A stretch of 64,000 bases of DNA from assembly GCA_021371995.1 (NCBI GenBank), contig JAJFVA010000010.1:124001-188000 (forward strand). Reading direction: 5' to 3'. Positions 697-19,152 of the stretch are shown here, piece by piece. This DNA comes from Methanoregulaceae archaeon (GTDB lineage Archaea; Halobacteriota; Methanomicrobia; Methanomicrobiales; Methanospirillaceae). Every line of letters starts with the position of its first letter. Positions within the stretch are counted from its first letter, which is position 1. Position numbers and translations under genes: made by a program. Below the pieces are notes generated by a model that was not told where the DNA came from, did no database searches, and saw only the letters and a list, made by a program, of their open reading frames with translations.

Positions 697-1827
697 TCAG
701 GGATCCCTGGCGTGCTGATGATCCAGGCAGGCATTGAGTACATCCTCCATCAACCCTGCCAGACCCTGGATACCGATGATAGGCCGGGCTCTCAGTCTCA
801 CCATGCCTCTCAGAGGATAAGTGAACGGGATAAAAGCTGCAGTCGGGCAGGCCATGCGTTCAAATGAAGACCCGAGAAGGAGATCGGGAGGATCACCTGC
901 GATAAGTTCCTGCACCGCAGAAAGGGAGCATGCTTCAGCAACCCTGAACGGTGAATGCCGGATACCATTACGGCAGCCGATAACAGTAATCGATGCATCG
1001 AGATATTTTTTAAGCATTCGTGCAGCAAAATCGGCATAGGAAAAGCCTGAGAATAGGGCAACCTCCGGGGGGTCATGCCGCATCAGGAATTTCTCGCAGG
1101 ATGTCTCGATTGCATGTTCTGCGATATCCCGCTCTCTTTCGAATGCATCCAGTCTCACATCGTCATAATGCTTTTCCAGGCATTTGAGCGCTTTTTCTGT
1201 ATCATCAATCCCGAGAAACGTCCCCCTGGCCAGCCCGTGACCGGAAGCAAGATCCGGATTTGTCTGAACCGTACTACACGAAGCCGGATTTATCTGGTCA
1301 AAGGTACAGTCACAAAACCGGGCTGCAACCGGGATTCCGGCGGATGCAAGGATTCGCTCCGCCTCAAGGGAATTTCCTGAACAGAACGGGTCGAGGAGCT
1401 GTATCCCGTCAAGATTGACCCCGCAGACATCGGGATCCGGCTTCACGGGCAGTGCCCGGCATGCAGCCAGGTAGCCATCCTCAAAATTGCCGAGGAACCC
1501 GGGACTGTCCACCATGATGATTTCGCCGGGAAGGTAATGGCGGATGTCTTCGCCAATTATTGCCGGGGTGCAGGTATTAACAACGGCAACTGCTCTGTAA
1601 CGCTCCTGCAATGACCGGACGAGATCAAGAAGGCGCTCTTCTGCACCGAATATTATATCTTCCTCGATCAGGAAGGTGCAGTGAAGTTCACGGTGAAGGA
1701 TAGTCGCAGGATAAAAATAGCATCCGCTTGGCCCGTGGATGACAGTACCGATTCCCCCGATACCTGCAAAACAGGTGACTGCGCCCGTCATTGCACAGGG
1801 CCACAGGGCATTCATGCATTCACGCAT
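697..1827 (-). CDS. Nitrogenase-like component 1, NifK/NifN-like subunit
   Basis: This 376-aa protein belongs to the nitrogenase component 1 / protochlorophyllide reductase superfamily. With the start at 1827, Cys11 (WPCAMTGAV), Cys36 (HGPSGC) and Cys86 (VVNTC, followed by IIGEDI) fall on the three P-cluster ligand positions of NifK. It is much shorter than nitrogenase NifK (about 500 aa) and is unusually cysteine rich. I chose 1827 over the longer frame (1914) because it has a GAGGG ribosome site and overlaps the upstream gene by only 8 nt, suggesting translational coupling. It is the third gene of a NifH-like, D-like, K-like operon. Likely it forms the second half of a heteromeric reductase. 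The substrate is unknown; nothing nearby (no NifB/E/N) supports N2 fixation. Confidence 0.8.
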   Translation of the reverse strand: MRECMNALWPCAMTGAVTCFAGIGGIGTVIHGPSGCYFYPATILHRELHCTFLIEEDIIFGAEERLLDLVRSLQERYRAVAVVNTCTPAIIGEDIRHYLPGEIIMVDSPGFLGNFEDGYLAACRALPVKPDPDVCGVNLDGIQLLDPFCSGNSLEAERILASAGIPVAARFCDCTFDQINPASCSTVQTNPDLASGHGLARGTFLGIDDTEKALKCLEKHYDDVRLDAFERERDIAEHAIETSCEKFLMRHDPPEVALFSGFSYADFAARMLKKYLDASITVIGCRNGIRHSPFRVAEACSLSAVQELIAGDPPDLLLGSSFERMACPTAAFIPFTYPLRGMVRLRARPIIGIQGLAGLMEDVLNACLDHQHARDP

Positions 1828-2833
1828 GGATAACCCTCTGCCATCGGCTGAGCATCCGAAAAAGACCTGCTGTACCGACCGGAAGCGGATCAGGAAAAGA
1901 AAGCAGCCGTCCATGATCCTTCAGTTCAAGGTCAAAAGTCTCCAGCAACTCGGTAAGAACCGGACCGGATGTCTGACCCCAGTGGTGAATCATGACCGTT
2001 TTTCTCCTTAAATCAGAAAAATGTTCAATAATTCCTTTCTGGTACGCCCTTTCAGCAGCGATGGCACTGTCGCTTTCGATGTCCAGTTCTTCCCCCACGC
2101 GGGAAAGGAAACGAAGAGTTCCTTCAAACCCGACAGGGAAGGAAGGAAGAAACGGGGTGCCAAACCGATTCTCAAGGGCAGAGCCGACATCGGTAAGCGA
2201 CTCGTCGCGCAATATATTGAGTGAAGCACATCCAAGGTTTCCTATCGCAGAAACCGGAATATTCCTGACAAACCGGAGCTGGATCTTCACCCCGAGCAAT
2301 GAGAGGAGGCGTGCTACTTCGCGATAGTTTGCTTCGGCTTCGTACTCGAGGTTTTTTTCACCGACCAGATTTACCATCCCGGACTGATTCCCTCCATGAC
2401 AAAGGGAGGAGAGCGCGATGAGTGCCGATTTCACGCCATCAGAAAATCCCCCTCCAAGGAATCCGCCAGTGGGGACAATAATAACAGGGCACCCATGAAC
2501 CTCACAACAGACTGACCGGACATCGTCACCTATCGCCGCGGCAACACAGGAAGTCAGGATGAAAACAGCTCCGTGATTCCCTTCAAACGCCCTTGTGATC
2601 GTATCCTCAAGTGCTTTTTCCCCGCCGAATATGATCTCCTGTTCCTTCAGCGATGTTGAGAGGATGGAAGGCAGCACGAGCTGGTCGTTGTCGAAATGAA
2701 GGGCATGAAGGAGGGAGAAATTATGGTGGGCACAACCGTCAGGGCCATGAATTATCGAGACTGCATCCTGAACAGACGTGGTGACCGACAGCGCTCCGGT
2801 GAGCGTGCACCCCTCAGTCCGCGATGAAGTCAT
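1820..2833 (-). CDS. Nitrogenase-like component 1, NifD/CfbD-like subunit
   Basis: This 337-aa protein is another component 1 paralogue. With the ATG at 2833 it has Cys9 ([10 protein letters not shown]), Cys34 (HGPDGC) and Cys96 ([13 protein letters not shown]), the three positions that ligate the P-cluster in NifD. CfbD, encoded at 16709-17782, keeps only the second and third. The FeMo-co cysteine and histidine of NifD cannot be identified, and the protein lacks about 140 residues relative to nitrogenase NifD. The start at 2833 overlaps the NifH-like gene by 20 nt and fits the family N-terminus better than 2950. Probable role: the catalytic subunit, with the 697-1827 product, of an ATP-driven reductase fed by the adjacent NifH-like protein. 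The substrate is unassigned; a tetrapyrrole or a small sulfur- or carbon-containing compound would fit known relatives. Confidence 0.8.
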
Positions 2834-3632
2834 AGGCCAGGGCCTCAAGATCCTCAATTTCGAGTGGCTCAGGAATGTCGAGCCGTTTATTCTCGAGTAT
2901 TTTTCCGGCCAGGAGACGATAAGCTCCTGCCTGCGGCGTGTCAGGAGCAAACTCTATCACCGTCATCCGGTTGAGTTCGGCACGCTGAACAACCGGGTCC
3001 CTTGGAATAAACTGAATGAGCGTACTACCTATCCTGTCGGCGAATGTTGCCACAAGCTCCTCTTCATCGGGGAGGTTCTTTGCATTGCATATCACCCCGC
3101 CAAGGCGGCACTGGCCCCGGGAACGTCCGGAGAGCCGCTTGATCGCCTTACAGATATTATTGGCCGCATAAAGGGACATCAACTCCCCGGAGGTGACCAG
3201 GTACACTTCCTTTGCGTACCCTTCCCGCATCGGCATGGCAAAACCCCCGCAGACAACATCGCCGAGCACATCATAGACCACCACATCGGCATGGAGGGCA
3301 CCAAGCCGCTCCAGGACCTGGAAAGTAGCAATAATCCCCCGCCCGGCACAGCCCACCCCGGGTTCCGGACCCCCGGCTTCCACGCACCGGACGCCGCCAT
3401 ACCCGGTGAAAACCACGTCTTTTAAGGTAATTTCCTTGTCGCCCCGCTCCCGGACCTGATCCATGACCGTGGGAATCAGTCTGCCATGCATCAGCATACG
3501 GGTACTGTCACGTTTCGGGTCACACCCTATCTGGAGAACATCAAGCCCCATTCCGGAAAGGGCTGCGGAGATATTGGTTGATGTGGTGGATTTCCCGATG
3601 CCGCCTTTTCCGTACAGGGCGATCTGTTTCAT
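2814..3632 (-). CDS. NifH/CfbC-like ATP-dependent iron-sulfur reductase
   Basis: This 272-aa protein has the P-loop GKGGIGKS (residues 8-15), switch II DVLGD (121-125), and Cys95 (GVGCAGRG) and Cys128 (VVCGGFAMP), which ligate the [4Fe-4S] cluster between the two halves of a NifH-type dimer. It therefore keeps every residue needed for ATP-gated electron transfer. Length and motifs suit CfbC (the F430 reductase) as well as NifH. It is the first gene of an operon with two NifD/K-like genes, so its direct partner is probably that pair. The cfbA-E-D-B cluster at 15.1-19.2 kb has no cfbC of its own, so it could also serve CfbD. The box A lies about 25 nt before the ATG, so the mRNA is probably leaderless. 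Confidence 0.85.
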
Positions 3633-3650: not shown

Positions 3651-3688
3651 ATTTTATATTAGCTATTCTGAAGTTTACACCAGTTTAC
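3651..3688 (-). promoter_or_regulatory. Promoter of the nitrogenase-like operon with phased direct repeats
   Basis: The minus strand shows AATATAAAAT (3651-3660), centred about 24 nt from the start codon at 3632, which predicts a leaderless transcript. Just upstream the heptamer GTAAACT (plus-strand AGTTTAC) occurs at 3672-3678 and 3682-3688, exactly 10 bp apart, so both copies face the same side of the helix. That is a typical layout for an activator site next to box A. The regulator is unknown, and it does not match the NrpR nitrogen operator (GGAA-N6-TTCC). Confidence 0.5.
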
Positions 3689-3698
3689 TTGAGTCCGC

Positions 3699-15105: not shown

Positions 15106-15507
15106 ATGAGTAAGAAGGGCATCCTACTGGTTGGCCATGGAAGCAAACTCCCCTACAATAAGGAACTTGTTGAAGAGACTGCAGGGCTTATTGCCCGTAA
15201 ATACCCGGATTTTATTGTAAAATGCGGTTTTATGAATATGAACTCCCCCTCTATCAAGGAATCGATGGACGAGTTCCGGAAGGAGCCTATCGGGGTGCTG
15301 GTGGTCGTCCCCCTGTTCCTTGCCAAGGGGGTCCATATCCTGCAGGATATCCCGGAAATCATCGGTCTTTCTGAGGGAGAGACCCGCGGGCAGTTTGCAT
15401 TAAACGGGAAGAGCATCCCCCTCCTCTATGCCGACCCCATCGGAAGCGACCCGCTCCTTGCAGACCTGATGGTAAAGAATGCGCAGAGGGTGCTTTCGGG
15501 CCTGTAA
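15106..15507 (+). CDS. cfbA: Sirohydrochlorin nickelochelatase
   Basis: This 133-aa protein belongs to the small CbiX (CbiX-S) family. The metal-binding histidines are in GILLVGHGSK (His at about residue 11) and FLAKGVHI (about 75). CfbA inserts Ni2+ into sirohydrochlorin in the first dedicated step of coenzyme F430 synthesis; it can also insert Co2+. There is no Shine-Dalgarno sequence and the palindrome at 15079-15097 is adjacent, so the mRNA may be leaderless. It leads cfbE-cfbD-cfbB with 6-nt spacing to the next gene. The half-size length is normal for archaea, where the enzyme is a homodimer. Confidence 0.92.
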   Translation: MSKKGILLVGHGSKLPYNKELVEETAGLIARKYPDFIVKCGFMNMNSPSIKESMDEFRKEPIGVLVVVPLFLAKGVHILQDIPEIIGLSEGETRGQFALNGKSIPLLYADPIGSDPLLADLMVKNAQRVLSGL

Positions 15508-15513
15508 CCCTCC

Positions 15514-16701
15514 ATGAGAGTTCTTGTTATCGACACGATCCATGGCGGCCTCGATATCGCGAGGTACCTGAACGGTAAAGGGCATTTTACCGATACGGTC
15601 GATATTTACCGGGGAAAGTCGGGGATCGATGCCGCAACAGCCGCGTCAAGGGACTATGACCTGGCGGTGGTGCCGGTACATCTCGACCCTGCACACCCGC
15701 TGGTGCGGTCACTCTCCATCCCCTCTATCACGCACCATGATGCGGTCAGGTGGATCCTGGGAAAGGACCGGCCCACACCATTCGTGGAGATAACGGGAGC
15801 CCGCGGAAAGACCACCACGGCATGTGCCCTTGCCCATACCATGGATGGTCCCGGTATCCTCCATACCTCGATGGGAACCTATCGTTTCCCGGGAAAGGAA
15901 CTGCTCTTCAGGAAGAGCATCACCCCGGCATCCGTCCTCCCTGCCGCAGATGAGGCGTTCCGGGAAAACGGCTGGCTGATTTCTGAGGTATCGCTGGGCT
16001 GCACTGGAGCCGGGGACTACGGGATTATCACTTCGGGCGAGGATTATCTTTTTGCAGGGGGAAAGCGGCATGCCCTTGCAGAGAAGGTACGGTCCGCAGG
16101 AAGAATGCCCCGCCTCCTTGTTGCGCCGGGAGTCGATGCCCCGGGGGCAGTACGGGTGGAGTCGGCAGCGCTTGTGCAGGGCGGTTCCTGCAGGTATCAT
16201 TGTGCCGGGGGGGATGGCACGTTTTCATCCCCTCTCCTCTCTCTCGAGGGTTACCGGATACCGCTGATGCTTGCCGCTGCGGCCGGCTGCGAACTTTCGG
16301 CCGATCCCGGGAAGCTCTCCTCGTTTCCGGCAATCCCGGGCAGGATGTCGGAGTCGTCTGAGGGTGGCATCCTGATAATCGACAACGCCAATTCCGGGAC
16401 CAATGCCCAAACCACCATCGATGCCGCCGAATATGCACGGAAGATCTCGGGAACGGACGAAATTACCCTCGTGATCGGGCAGGAAGCGGGGGCAGTATGC
16501 GAGGGATTCCCTTCCGACGAGATCATGGCCGCGGTCAGCAGGATCCGCCCGGCCCGGCTCATTCTGGTCGGCGATGCCGGAATCGGGGAGTGTGCCGGCA
16601 TCCCCGTGACCCGTGCAGGGACTCTGGCCGATGGAACGGCCATCGCACGATCCATGACAAAACAAGGGAGCATTGTCCTCTCTGTGAAGTGCTGGAGGTA
16701 A
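15514..16701 (+). CDS. cfbE: Coenzyme F430 synthase (Mur ligase-like)
   Basis: This 395-aa protein has a Mur-ligase ATP site, TGARGKTTTACAL (about residues 89-101), and the later IIDNANSGTNAQTTIDAA (about 288-305). CfbE is the last enzyme of the F430 pathway: it activates the g-propionate side chain of 15,17(3)-seco-F430-17(3)-acid with ATP and closes the six-membered carbocyclic ring. Position between cfbA and cfbD, with 6-7 nt gaps, supports the call. The length is typical. Confidence 0.9.
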   Translation: MRVLVIDTIHGGLDIARYLNGKGHFTDTVDIYRGKSGIDAATAASRDYDLAVVPVHLDPAHPLVRSLSIPSITHHDAVRWILGKDRPTPFVEITGARGKTTTACALAHTMDGPGILHTSMGTYRFPGKELLFRKSITPASVLPAADEAFRENGWLISEVSLGCTGAGDYGIITSGEDYLFAGGKRHALAEKVRSAGRMPRLLVAPGVDAPGAVRVESAALVQGGSCRYHCAGGDGTFSSPLLSLEGYRIPLMLAAAAGCELSADPGKLSSFPAIPGRMSESSEGGILIIDNANSGTNAQTTIDAAEYARKISGTDEITLVIGQEAGAVCEGFPSDEIMAAVSRIRPARLILVGDAGIGECAGIPVTRAGTLADGTAIARSMTKQGSIVLSVKCWR

Positions 16702-16708
16702 GAAGGAT

Positions 16709-17782
16709 ATGAAATACATGCAGCCGAGGCCGAGTTCGATTGTTGCAGCCCTTTACACGGCACGGGATCTCGAAGTCGATGTTGCGGTGCTCCACGGCCC
16801 GTCAGGATGCTCCTTCAAGCATGCCCGGCTCCTCGAGGAGGACGGGATGCGGGTGCTGACTACCTCCCTTGCGGACCATGAGTTCATCTTCGGCGGACAG
16901 GAGCCGCTTGAACGGGTGCTGAAGTACGCGGAGGAGACGTTCCACCCGCACCGGATGGCGGTGGTGGGCACGTGCGTCTCCATGATCATCGGGGAGGACC
17001 TCAAGTCGGCTGTCAGCCTTTCCGGGGTCACGACACCGACAATTGCAATCGAAATCCATGCGGGGTTCCCGGAAAACATCGAGGGAGTGATCGCAACCCT
17101 CGAACCGGCTGCCGAGGCAGGATGGATCTCTGCCGAAGAACTCGAACGCCAGAAGCATCTCCTTGCCATGGCTAACGAGGTCGAACGGCTCCGCGGCGCC
17201 GCGTCCAAGCCTTATATCGAACCGTCACGGGGGGATCTCAAGCATCAGGTCGCCCGGCGGCTTGCCGACCTTGCAGGGTCAGGGAAGAAGGGGGTGGCGG
17301 TCATGAATGCCAAGAAGGAGACCGCCTACATGTTTGCCGACGAACTCCTTGCACTCCATGATGCCTGCCCCCGTGCCACTATCACGTACATCGCCAACCT
17401 CGAGTCGCGGGGTCTTCCAAAGGTGAGGGAAGATGCCCGGAGGATCCTCTCCGGGATGCAGGAAAGGGGAGTGGCGCCCGAACTTCTCGGGGCCCTCGAT
17501 GAATATGGCGCCAACGGTGATGCTATCGGCAGGCGGCTTTTGGAACTTGAACCGGATTTTGCCCTCATTGCCGGGGTGCCGCATGCTATCCCGCAGGAGT
17601 ATACTGATGGGATCGAGTGCATCTCTGTCACAAACGGCCCCCGGCAGGTCGAGCCCCTCAGGGATCTTGGCCACCGGCACGTCATTGTCGAGATTGATCT
17701 CCATCCCCAGACCCTCGGTGTCAGGGATATTGTCGGGAGCGAGTTTGGCGCTGTCATCCGGAGCATGCCATGCGGTCCCTGA
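16709..17782 (+). CDS. cfbD: Ni-sirohydrochlorin a,c-diamide reductive cyclase, catalytic subunit
   Basis: This 357-aa NifD-like protein has Cys34 (HGPSGC) and Cys89 (VVGTCVSMIIGEDL). It lacks the first of the three P-cluster cysteines of NifD, as expected for CfbD, whose homodimer holds a shared [4Fe-4S] cluster. With the CfbC reductase it performs the six-electron reduction and lactam-ring closure of Ni-sirohydrochlorin a,c-diamide. Its partner gene cfbC is absent from this cluster. The nearest candidate is the NifH-like gene at 2814-3632. The stop overlaps the start of cfbB by 13 nt. Confidence 0.92.
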   Translation: MKYMQPRPSSIVAALYTARDLEVDVAVLHGPSGCSFKHARLLEEDGMRVLTTSLADHEFIFGGQEPLERVLKYAEETFHPHRMAVVGTCVSMIIGEDLKSAVSLSGVTTPTIAIEIHAGFPENIEGVIATLEPAAEAGWISAEELERQKHLLAMANEVERLRGAASKPYIEPSRGDLKHQVARRLADLAGSGKKGVAVMNAKKETAYMFADELLALHDACPRATITYIANLESRGLPKVREDARRILSGMQERGVAPELLGALDEYGANGDAIGRRLLELEPDFALIAGVPHAIPQEYTDGIECISVTNGPRQVEPLRDLGHRHVIVEIDLHPQTLGVRDIVGSEFGAVIRSMPCGP

Positions 17783-19152
17783 TGGTATCCGGGGACCGGT
17801 CGGGGAGCGGAAAGACGAGCATCAGCCTCGCCATTGCGGCTCTTCTCTCCGAGAAGATGGCGGTCCAGACCTTCAAGGTGGGCATGGACTATATCGACCC
17901 CTCCTACCTGACGGGAGTCACCGGCCGCCCCTGCCGGAACCTGGACACGTTCGTGATGGACCGGGAGGACCTGATGAGGATATTTTTCCACGGGATGCAG
18001 GGTTCCGACTTAGGCCTGATCGAGGGGGTGCGGGGACTCTACGAGGGAGCCGAGTCGCTTGAGGATACCGGGAGCAGTGCTGCCGTCGCAAAACTCCTGA
18101 ACGTCCCGGTCGTGCTCGTGGTGAGTGCGCGGAGTATCACAAGGAGCGCTGCGGCTATCGTCAGGGGGTTCCAGTCCTTTGATCCTGCCATAGATATCAG
18201 GGGGATCATCCTGAACAATGTCTCGGGCTCGCAGCATATCCGGAAGGCAACCGAGGCGATCGAGCACCACTGCGGGATCCCGGTCATCGGCGCTGTCCCC
18301 CGGCAGCCCGAAATGGAGCTTGCCATGCGGCACCTGGGCCTTGTCCCTTATCTGGAAGGGAAGGCCGCTCCTGCTTTTCTCAAGCGGATCGAGGCAGTCA
18401 CCGCCATGGTCGGGGACCATATCGACCTCGATGCCCTGCTCGGCCTCGCCCGCCCGGTTGCTCAGCCTCCTGGCACTGACCCGTTCTTCGAGCCGGCGGA
18501 TCCACCCGCGACGACGATCGCAGTTGCCCTCGATGAAGCGTTCAATTTCTACTATGCAGATCTCTTCGATGTGCTCCGGGCAGAGGGTGCCCGGGTGACG
18601 ACATTCAGCCCGGTGCACGATATCCTCCCCGATGCCGACGGCTACATATTCGGCGGGGGGTACCCGGAACTGTTCCTCAACGAACTGGAGGCTAATGACC
18701 GGATGAGGGAAGCGGTCTTTGAGCGCTCGCGGGAAGGTGCCCCGATCTATGCCGAATGCGGGGGCCTGATGTATCTTACCGGGGGGATACGGACGCTCCC
18801 GGGGTGGCAGGGATCAGATGAGGGGGAGTCGTGCCGGATGTGCGGGGTCTTTGAAGGCGAAACGGTCATGCCGGCAAAAAGGGTAGTGAGTTATGTTGAA
18901 GGGGAGAGCCTCGGCAGAAACCCTGTCGGTCCCGGCCGTTTCCGGGGCCATGAATTCCATTATTCGGACGTGATCCTTCCCGAGAACACCCGTTTTTCGT
19001 ACGTGCTCTCCCGGGGAAAGGGCATCCGGGGGCAGCTTGACGGCGCTCTCATGGACAACACGATCGGGAGCTACACCCATCTTCACCCGGTGAGCAGCCG
19101 TGGTATGTTCTCTTCCTTTGTCTCCCTTTGCCGCGACCAGTCCCGGAGATAA
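17770..19152 (+). CDS. cfbB: Ni-sirohydrochlorin a,c-diamide synthase
   Basis: This 460-aa protein has the CobB/CbiA layout. An N-terminal ATP-binding domain carries GDRSGSGKTSISLAIAALL (about residues 8-26), and a C-terminal class I glutamine amidotransferase domain has YAECGGLMYL (nucleophile Cys at about 328) and a late EFHYSDV histidine. It amidates the a and c acetate side chains of Ni-sirohydrochlorin with glutamine and ATP. The closest alternative is cobyrinate a,c-diamide synthase of B12 synthesis, but the position as the last gene of cfbA-E-D-B decides it. ilvE begins 41 nt later from its own promoter. Confidence 0.9.
   Translation: MRSLMVSGDRSGSGKTSISLAIAALLSEKMAVQTFKVGMDYIDPSYLTGVTGRPCRNLDTFVMDREDLMRIFFHGMQGSDLGLIEGVRGLYEGAESLEDTGSSAAVAKLLNVPVVLVVSARSITRSAAAIVRGFQSFDPAIDIRGIILNNVSGSQHIRKATEAIEHHCGIPVIGAVPRQPEMELAMRHLGLVPYLEGKAAPAFLKRIEAVTAMVGDHIDLDALLGLARPVAQPPGTDPFFEPADPPATTIAVALDEAFNFYYADLFDVLRAEGARVTTFSPVHDILPDADGYIFGGGYPELFLNELEANDRMREAVFERSREGAPIYAECGGLMYLTGGIRTLPGWQGSDEGESCRMCGVFEGETVMPAKRVVSYVEGESLGRNPVGPGRFRGHEFHYSDVILPENTRFSYVLSRGKGIRGQLDGALMDNTIGSYTHLHPVSSRGMFSSFVSLCRDQSRR

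What the first reader, a model, noticed from the sequence alone, without database searches (positions are those of the whole stretch)
697..3632. Nitrogenase-like H-D-K operon of unassigned substrate, distinct from the F430 reductase
Three overlapping minus-strand genes encode a complete NifH-like ATPase (P-loop, Cys95, Cys128) and two component 1 proteins of 337 and 376 aa. Each component 1 protein keeps three cysteines at the P-cluster positions (Cys9/34/96 and Cys11/36/86). CfbD in this same window keeps only two (Cys34, Cys89). Retention of all six ligands suggests a heteromeric D-K complex with a larger, P-cluster-like centre, unlike the homodimeric CfbD. The subunits are too short for nitrogenase, the FeMo-co ligands are not visible and no NifB/E/N is adjacent. 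Known relatives reduce protochlorophyllide, chlorophyllide, Ni-sirohydrochlorin or methylthio-alkanes; none fits the context. This is the best candidate for a new reductase system.
Basis: partly seen in the sequence, partly recalled or inferred. Interest (0 to 1): 0.88.

Follow-up and report, generated by a model that had tools for sequence, protein, structure and literature searches.

The report
Nitrogenase-like operon sharing F430's electron donor
Methanogens of one order carry a three-gene nitrogenase-like operon whose first gene is very probably the only electron donor for making the methane coenzyme F430, while the other two genes encode a conserved second enzyme, of unknown substrate, that appears to share that donor.

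Summary
The H-D-K operon is real (window 697-3632, minus strand) and conserved: D and K occur in about 200 of 232 genomes of the order (Methanomicrobiales by its named members) and in no other sampled genome of the phylum. All six P-cluster-position cysteines are invariant. The nitrogenase cofactor ligand is not conserved.

The claim 'distinct from the F430 reductase' fails for H. H passes NCBI's curated CfbC cut-off and is the only NifH protein in this genome and most relatives checked. The window's cfbA-E-D-B cluster has no cfbC. So H is very probably CfbC, and D-K a second catalytic component sharing it.

D is a shortened NifE/NifD-type subunit, K a NifK/NifN-type subunit. Each forms its own fully supported clade outside NifDK, NifEN, VnfEN, a MAR-like pair, DPOR, COR and CfbD. 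The nearest relatives are NifH-NifE fusion systems beside cobamide-type genes. D-K's substrate is unknown; a corrin-reductase role was tested and rejected. Six cysteines without a cofactor ligand were seen in no other pair examined.

The parts
2814..3632 (-). H: NifH-type ATPase / [4Fe-4S] reductase; the genome's only NifH and very probably its CfbC
   Evidence: Fer4_NifH 364 bits; NCBIfam F430_CfbC 413.1 against cut-off 402; sole NifH in genome; Cys95 and Cys128 invariant
1820..2833 (-). D: alpha/NifE-type component 1 subunit, C-terminal domain shortened; Cys9, Cys34, Cys96 at P-cluster positions
   Evidence: Oxidored_nitro 185 bits; 43/43 invariant Cys; AF2 pLDDT 88.7, Foldseek best NifE chains
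697..1827 (-). K: beta/NifN-type component 1 subunit; Cys11, Cys36, Cys86 at P-cluster positions
   Evidence: Oxidored_nitro 122 bits; 43/43 invariant Cys; AF2 pLDDT 91.8, Foldseek best VnfK/NifN/BchB chains
2814..2833 (-). H-D gene overlap (20 bp), suggests translational coupling
   Evidence: ORF coordinates; H-D adjacency throughout the order
1820..1827 (-). D-K gene overlap (8 bp)
   Evidence: ORF coordinates
3651..3691 (-). Putative promoter of the operon: TATA-like AATATAAAAT (3660-3651) preceded by a conserved element CAAGTAAACTGGTGTAAACTTCAG (about 3691-3668)
   Evidence: Upstream alignment of orthologues; single match in the window, 0.01 expected; 61 matches to the extended motif in fetched loci, all upstream of an H gene
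16709..17782 (+). CfbD, the other catalytic component that H must serve
   Evidence: TIGR03282 514.5 bits against cut-off 268.4
15106..19152 (+). cfbA-cfbE-cfbD-cfbB cluster without a cfbC
   Evidence: ORF list; only cfbD was tested against a curated model, A/E/B named by position and sequence; no NifH within the cluster

Best explanation
The operon encodes one ATP-driven electron donor and a second catalytic component that uses it. H is CfbC, the Fe-protein that docks on CfbD for F430 synthesis (strongly supported by inference, not assayed). D and K form an alpha-beta (probably alpha2-beta2) nitrogenase-like component 1 in which three cysteines from each subunit meet at the interface and hold one Fe-S centre, either a P-cluster-type 8Fe centre or a [4Fe-4S] (inferred by homology). 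ATP-bound H passes electrons one at a time to this centre. Because the ligand of the nitrogenase active-site cluster is not conserved and the D domain that would enclose it is shortened, D-K most likely reduces a bulky organic substrate directly from the interface centre, as DPOR and CfbD do, rather than on an L- or M-cluster. A tetrapyrrole-like substrate is favoured because the nearest relatives sit beside cobalt-chelatase and cobamide-type uptake genes. The substrate itself is not identified.
For: H = CfbC: passes the curated CfbC cut-off of 402 bits (413 and 419 for two order members; CfbC genes adjacent to cfbD score 405 and 418, while NifH and other Nfl H proteins score 324-382). It is the only NifH over 300 bits in this 98.6% complete genome and in 11 of 13 other order genomes checked, one of which also has a NifH-NifE fusion. 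cfbD loci of other orders often have a NifH next to them, those of this order do not. Methanospirillum keeps orf147-H-prkB-fprA in place with D and K missing; in G130 (99% complete) the only component 1 protein is CfbD, and in G204 the D and K searches give a single CfbD-level match. D-K as a heteromer: overlapping genes, co-occurrence and co-loss, D alpha-type and K beta-type folds, six invariant Cys in P-cluster columns. Own clades with 100% support. Tetrapyrrole leaning: D groups with the E part of NifH-NifE fusions (SH-aLRT 93), whose neighbours include CbiK, CobN, FecCD and ABC proteins.
Against: No biochemical or expression data. The H clade does not group with CfbD-adjacent CfbC in the tree (AU p = 0.019) and sits nearer NifH (89/83), so H would be a replacement or strongly diverged CfbC. 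Support for the sister relation of D to the fusion proteins is below 95. Neighbouring genes give no substrate. The D-K complex could not be modelled, so the interface geometry is by homology only. One genome pair (G142/G143) has CfbD-level matches but no orthologue of H, so the H requirement may not be absolute.
Confidence: 0.5

Rival explanations
1. D-K is a NifEN-like scaffold that binds, holds or passes on complex Fe-S clusters (for instance L-clusters for the MCR activation proteins), with H acting as delivery or reducing partner.
For: Best profile and fold matches of D are NifE; all six P/O-cluster cysteines kept; methanogens need NifB-type clusters for MCR activation even without nitrogenase (PMC12176620).
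Against: Far below the NifE cut-off (104.9 of 505.1 bits); the cofactor-ligand Cys is not conserved; restricted to one order and lost in Methanospirillum, whereas MCR activation is general to methanogens (PMC12176620).
Confidence: 0.2
2. D-K is an accessory part of the F430 reductase: it modifies or assists the CfbC/CfbD reaction (extra subunits or an alternative reductase for the same intermediate).
For: Shares CfbC; K falls in a deep group with CfbD and the fusion N proteins (SH-aLRT 94).
Against: Methanospirillum and G130 have CfbD and H without D-K; CfbC and CfbD of other methanogens suffice for the step (PMC7242693).
Confidence: 0.15
3. D-K is the missing cobalt-precorrin-6A reductase (CbiJ) of the order.
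For: CbiJ is absent from all 232 genomes.
Against: D-K-less genomes (G130, G204, Methanospirillum) also lack CbiJ but keep CbiD, a corrin-ring gene; several D-K-bearing genomes 94-98% complete (G160, G172, G182, G227) lack CbiD.
Confidence: 0.03
4. D-K is a carbon-sulfur bond reductase of the MAR or isethionate-reductase kind.
For: Heteromeric H-D-K operon form and six cysteines as in MAR (PMC12552129).
Against: The MAR-like pair (Nfl2, matching MarD/MarK of 9d9u/9fmg at 240 and 296 bits) is a separate clade with the cofactor Cys conserved; no sulfur genes or radical-SAM maturase seen beside the operon.
Confidence: 0.05

Closest known systems
[quoted passage not shown]
   Same: H passes the CfbC model and is the only candidate partner for the genome's CfbD; ATP-driven transfer to a component 1 protein without an L-cluster.
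   Different: D-K is heteromeric with six cysteines, CfbD is homodimeric with two per subunit; D and K score 41 and 47 bits on the CfbD model (cut-off 268).
NifH-NifE fusion plus NifN-like systems (noted as 'data not shown' by Dos Santos 2012, PMC3464626)
   Same: Nearest relatives of D in profile search and tree; alpha/beta pair with NifH.
   Different: H and D are separate genes here; the fusion systems' N subunit keeps only one of the three Cys, K keeps all three; several of those lie beside CbiK, CobN or ABC uptake genes, D-K does not.
NifEN cofactor maturase
   Same: D and K folds match NifE and NifN; six P/O-cluster cysteines.
   Different: No conserved L-cluster Cys; D C-terminal domain shortened; scores far under the family cut-offs.
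Methylthio-alkane reductase (MarHDK)
   Same: H-D-K operon; six P-cluster cysteines.
   Different: Lacks the Cys270/His429-type ligands; separate clade from a MAR-like pair.
DPOR / COR (BchLNB, BchXYZ)
   Same: Proposed mode of action: Fe protein to interface cluster to organic substrate.
   Different: DPOR uses three Cys plus one Asp for a [4Fe-4S]; six Cys here; separate clades.
Mlab_1039/1040 pair of Methanocorpusculum labreanum (PMC3464626)
   Same: Methanomicrobiales nitrogenase-like pair without FeMo-co ligands.
   Different: Most likely the separate locus L246 of the same genome (inferred from map position), with fewer cysteines and an ABC transporter; the H-D-K operon of that genome is L247.

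Membership tests
CfbC | Curated family score (NF033200, cut-off 402 bits) | tested here: met
   413.1 bits; controls behave as expected
CfbC | Only available NifH-type partner for CfbD in the genome | tested here: met
CfbC | Same clade as CfbC genes adjacent to cfbD | tested here: not met
   Separate clade, AU p = 0.019 for holding them together
CfbC | Supports CfbD-dependent reduction in vitro | not testable with these tools
   No assay possible
Nitrogenase NifDK | Six P-cluster cysteines | tested here: met
Nitrogenase NifDK | Cys275 and His442 cofactor ligands | tested here: not met
   Cys202 region not conserved; D lacks part of the C-terminal domain
NifEN | TIGR01283 nifE cut-off and conserved L-cluster Cys | tested here: not met
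   D 104.9 and K 55 of 505.1 bits; Cys not conserved
CfbD | TIGR03282 cut-off 268.4; single subunit | tested here: not met
   D 41.2, K 47.1 bits; two different subunits
DPOR/COR catalytic subunits | TIGR01278/01279/02014/02015 cut-offs | tested here: not met
   All well below cut-off; separate clades
Methylthio-alkane reductase | [Fe8S9C] ligands and grouping with MAR-like pairs | tested here: not met
NifH-NifE fusion / NifN system | Fused NifH-NifE reading frame | tested here: not met
   Separate H and D genes in fetched loci of the order
P-cluster protein | [8Fe-7S] cluster actually bound | not testable with these tools
   Needs purified protein and spectroscopy

The most novel reading that the evidence does not exclude
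D-K is a new, order-specific reductase in which a P-cluster-type 8Fe centre, held by six cysteines in the absence of any L- or M-type cofactor, is the terminal electron donor to an organic (probably tetrapyrrole-like) substrate, and it shares its ATP-driven Fe protein with F430 synthesis.
Probability: 0.3. Interest if true: 0.85.

Novelty: new variant of a known kind. Interest (0 to 1): 0.55.

Why it matters
It would show that one Fe protein serves both F430 biosynthesis and an unassigned enzyme across a whole order of methanogens. It places the order's F430 reductase ATPase outside its cfb cluster, and it offers a natural gene-loss experiment (Methanospirillum against its relatives) for finding the substrate. 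A six-cysteine component 1 without the cofactor ligand would also fill a gap between DPOR/CfbD-type and nitrogenase-type enzymes, which bears on how the P-cluster arose.

Tried and rejected
Corrin-reductase (CbiJ replacement) idea: CbiJ is absent in 232/232 genomes, but CbiD is kept in D-K-less genomes and missing in several D-K-bearing ones; rejected. Neighbourhood clustering: trkH, prkB, fprA, desulfoferrodoxin and leuCDB-like genes recur but give no substrate clue. Separation of K from H-D in one genus (g27, family f4) and its kin reflects inserted genes, not a new partner. Nitrogen-regulation operator GGAA-N6-TTCC upstream of H: not found. Shared regulatory element with the cfb cluster: the upstream element occurs once in the window, only at H. 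A search for a second NifH in the genome found none. A D-K complex model could not be made because the structure tool takes single window proteins only.

Full report
Observation. The three genes are at 3632-2814 (H), 2833-1820 (D) and 1827-697 (K) on the minus strand, overlapping by 20 and 8 bp. H is a full NifH protein (364 bits); D and K are nitrogenase component 1 proteins (185 and 122 bits). In alignments of 48 H and 43 D and K orthologues, H Cys95 and Cys128, D Cys9/34/96 and K Cys11/36/86 are all invariant, and in an alignment with Nif, Vnf, Anf, MAR-like, Bch and CfbD proteins they occupy the P-cluster ligand columns; CfbD has two of the three.

Distribution. The window lies in a 1.85 Mb, 98.6% complete genome. 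Its closest named relatives are Methanoregulaceae MAGs, and the named loci found with D are nearly all Methanomicrobiales. By my count from the genome rows, D matches at E below 1e-50 in about 200 of 232 genomes of the order; K follows the same pattern. A profile search of 393 genomes drawn from the phylum found orthologues (E below 1e-100) only in the order; the best matches outside are NifH-NifE fusion proteins of about 740-800 aa. The order orf147-K-D-H-trkH-prkB-fprA recurs across families.

H is very probably CfbC. (1) NCBI's curated CfbC model: 413.1 bits for H and 419.2 for its Methanospirillum orthologue, cut-off 402; two CfbC genes adjacent to cfbD in other orders score 405 and 418, NifH 382, other Nfl H proteins 324-360. 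(2) PF00142 finds one real NifH in this genome (363 bits; next 40 bits), and the H orthologue is the only one over 300 bits in 11 of 13 other order genomes checked. (3) The window's cfb cluster (15106-19152) has A, E, D and B but no C; cfbD loci of other orders often have a NifH beside them, those of this order do not. G130 has H and a single component 1 protein, CfbD; G204 likewise by the D and K searches. Caveat: H does not group with CfbD-adjacent CfbC in the NifH tree (AU p = 0.019; nearer NifH, 89/83), so it looks like a replacement or a strongly diverged CfbC. This step is inference; nothing was assayed.

D and K. AlphaFold models are confident (pLDDT 88.7 and 91.8). Foldseek puts D with NifE-type alpha chains and K with VnfK/NifN/BchB-type beta chains. 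D lacks part of the C-terminal domain (Pfam match ends at profile position 293 of 399). In the component 1 tree the D and K orthologues are each monophyletic with full support and lie outside NifDK, NifEN, VnfEN, Anf, BchNB, BchYZ, CfbD and a MAR-like pair (MAR-likeness shown by 240 and 296 bit matches to the solved MAR chains). D groups with the E part of NifH-NifE fusions (93), K with fusion N proteins and CfbD (94); these two deep joins are only moderately supported, and the tree was a quick search. Among the pairs examined, D-K alone combines all six P-cluster cysteines with no conserved cofactor-ligand Cys.

Function. Shown: conserved pair, six cysteines, shared locus with the only NifH. 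Inferred: heteromeric complex, interface cluster, electron supply from H. Favoured but open: direct reduction of an organic substrate, perhaps a tetrapyrrole, from the neighbourhood of the fusion relatives (CbiK, CobN, FecCD, ABC proteins). Tested and rejected: corrin reductase. A NifEN-like scaffold role remains possible (about 0.2).

Regulation. A conserved element ending GTWAACWTCAG lies just upstream of a TATA-like box before H in family f1 and was found only upstream of H in the loci fetched. Its meaning is unknown.

Literature. Dos Santos 2012 (PMC3464626) described several archaeal nitrogenase-like clades including fused NifH-NifE genes; Ramirez-Amador 2025 (PMC12176620) and the MAR structure paper (PMC12552129) treat the family's evolution. 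I found no paper in the searchable library that describes this operon or its sharing of CfbC; subscription journals are largely missing there.

Verdict. Observation confirmed; interpretation partly supported. The finding is better described as the order's CfbC operon carrying a second, unassigned nitrogenase-like catalytic component.

Noticed in passing
L009:11300-12463 (genome C15:61306-62427, outside the window): Orphan NifE-like component 1 protein (387 aa) with three P-cluster Cys and a conserved Cys at the cofactor-ligand position, without a partner subunit gene; orthologues in 56 of 232 order genomes. In L265 it follows cfbE-cfbD-cfbB-ilvE directly and in L264 it lies about 2.4 kb from cfbD.
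   Followed up: partly
All 232 order genomes: CbiJ (cobalt-precorrin-6A reductase) has no match in any genome although CbiD is present in 194, so the reductase of that corrin step in this order is unknown.
   Followed up: partly
L230, L240, L246, L248: NifH-NifE fusion or pair systems next to FecCD/ABC uptake genes, and in some CbiK or CobN chelatase genes.
   Followed up: partly
G142 and G143 (genus g9): CfbD-level component 1 match only, no orthologue of H; the only NifH in G142 belongs to a different Nfl clade. Genomes are 85% and 62% complete.
   Followed up: no
G183 C28:1248-4174 and C32:5311-8237: Two copies of the H-D-K operon in one genome.
   Followed up: no
window 3651-3691: Family-specific conserved element upstream of the operon's TATA-like box, found only at H genes among fetched loci and absent in Methanospirillum.
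   Followed up: partly
L084-L087, L101, L111, L112, L116 (family f4): K is separated from H-D by about 2 to 15 kb of inserted genes, often on the opposite strand.
   Followed up: partly
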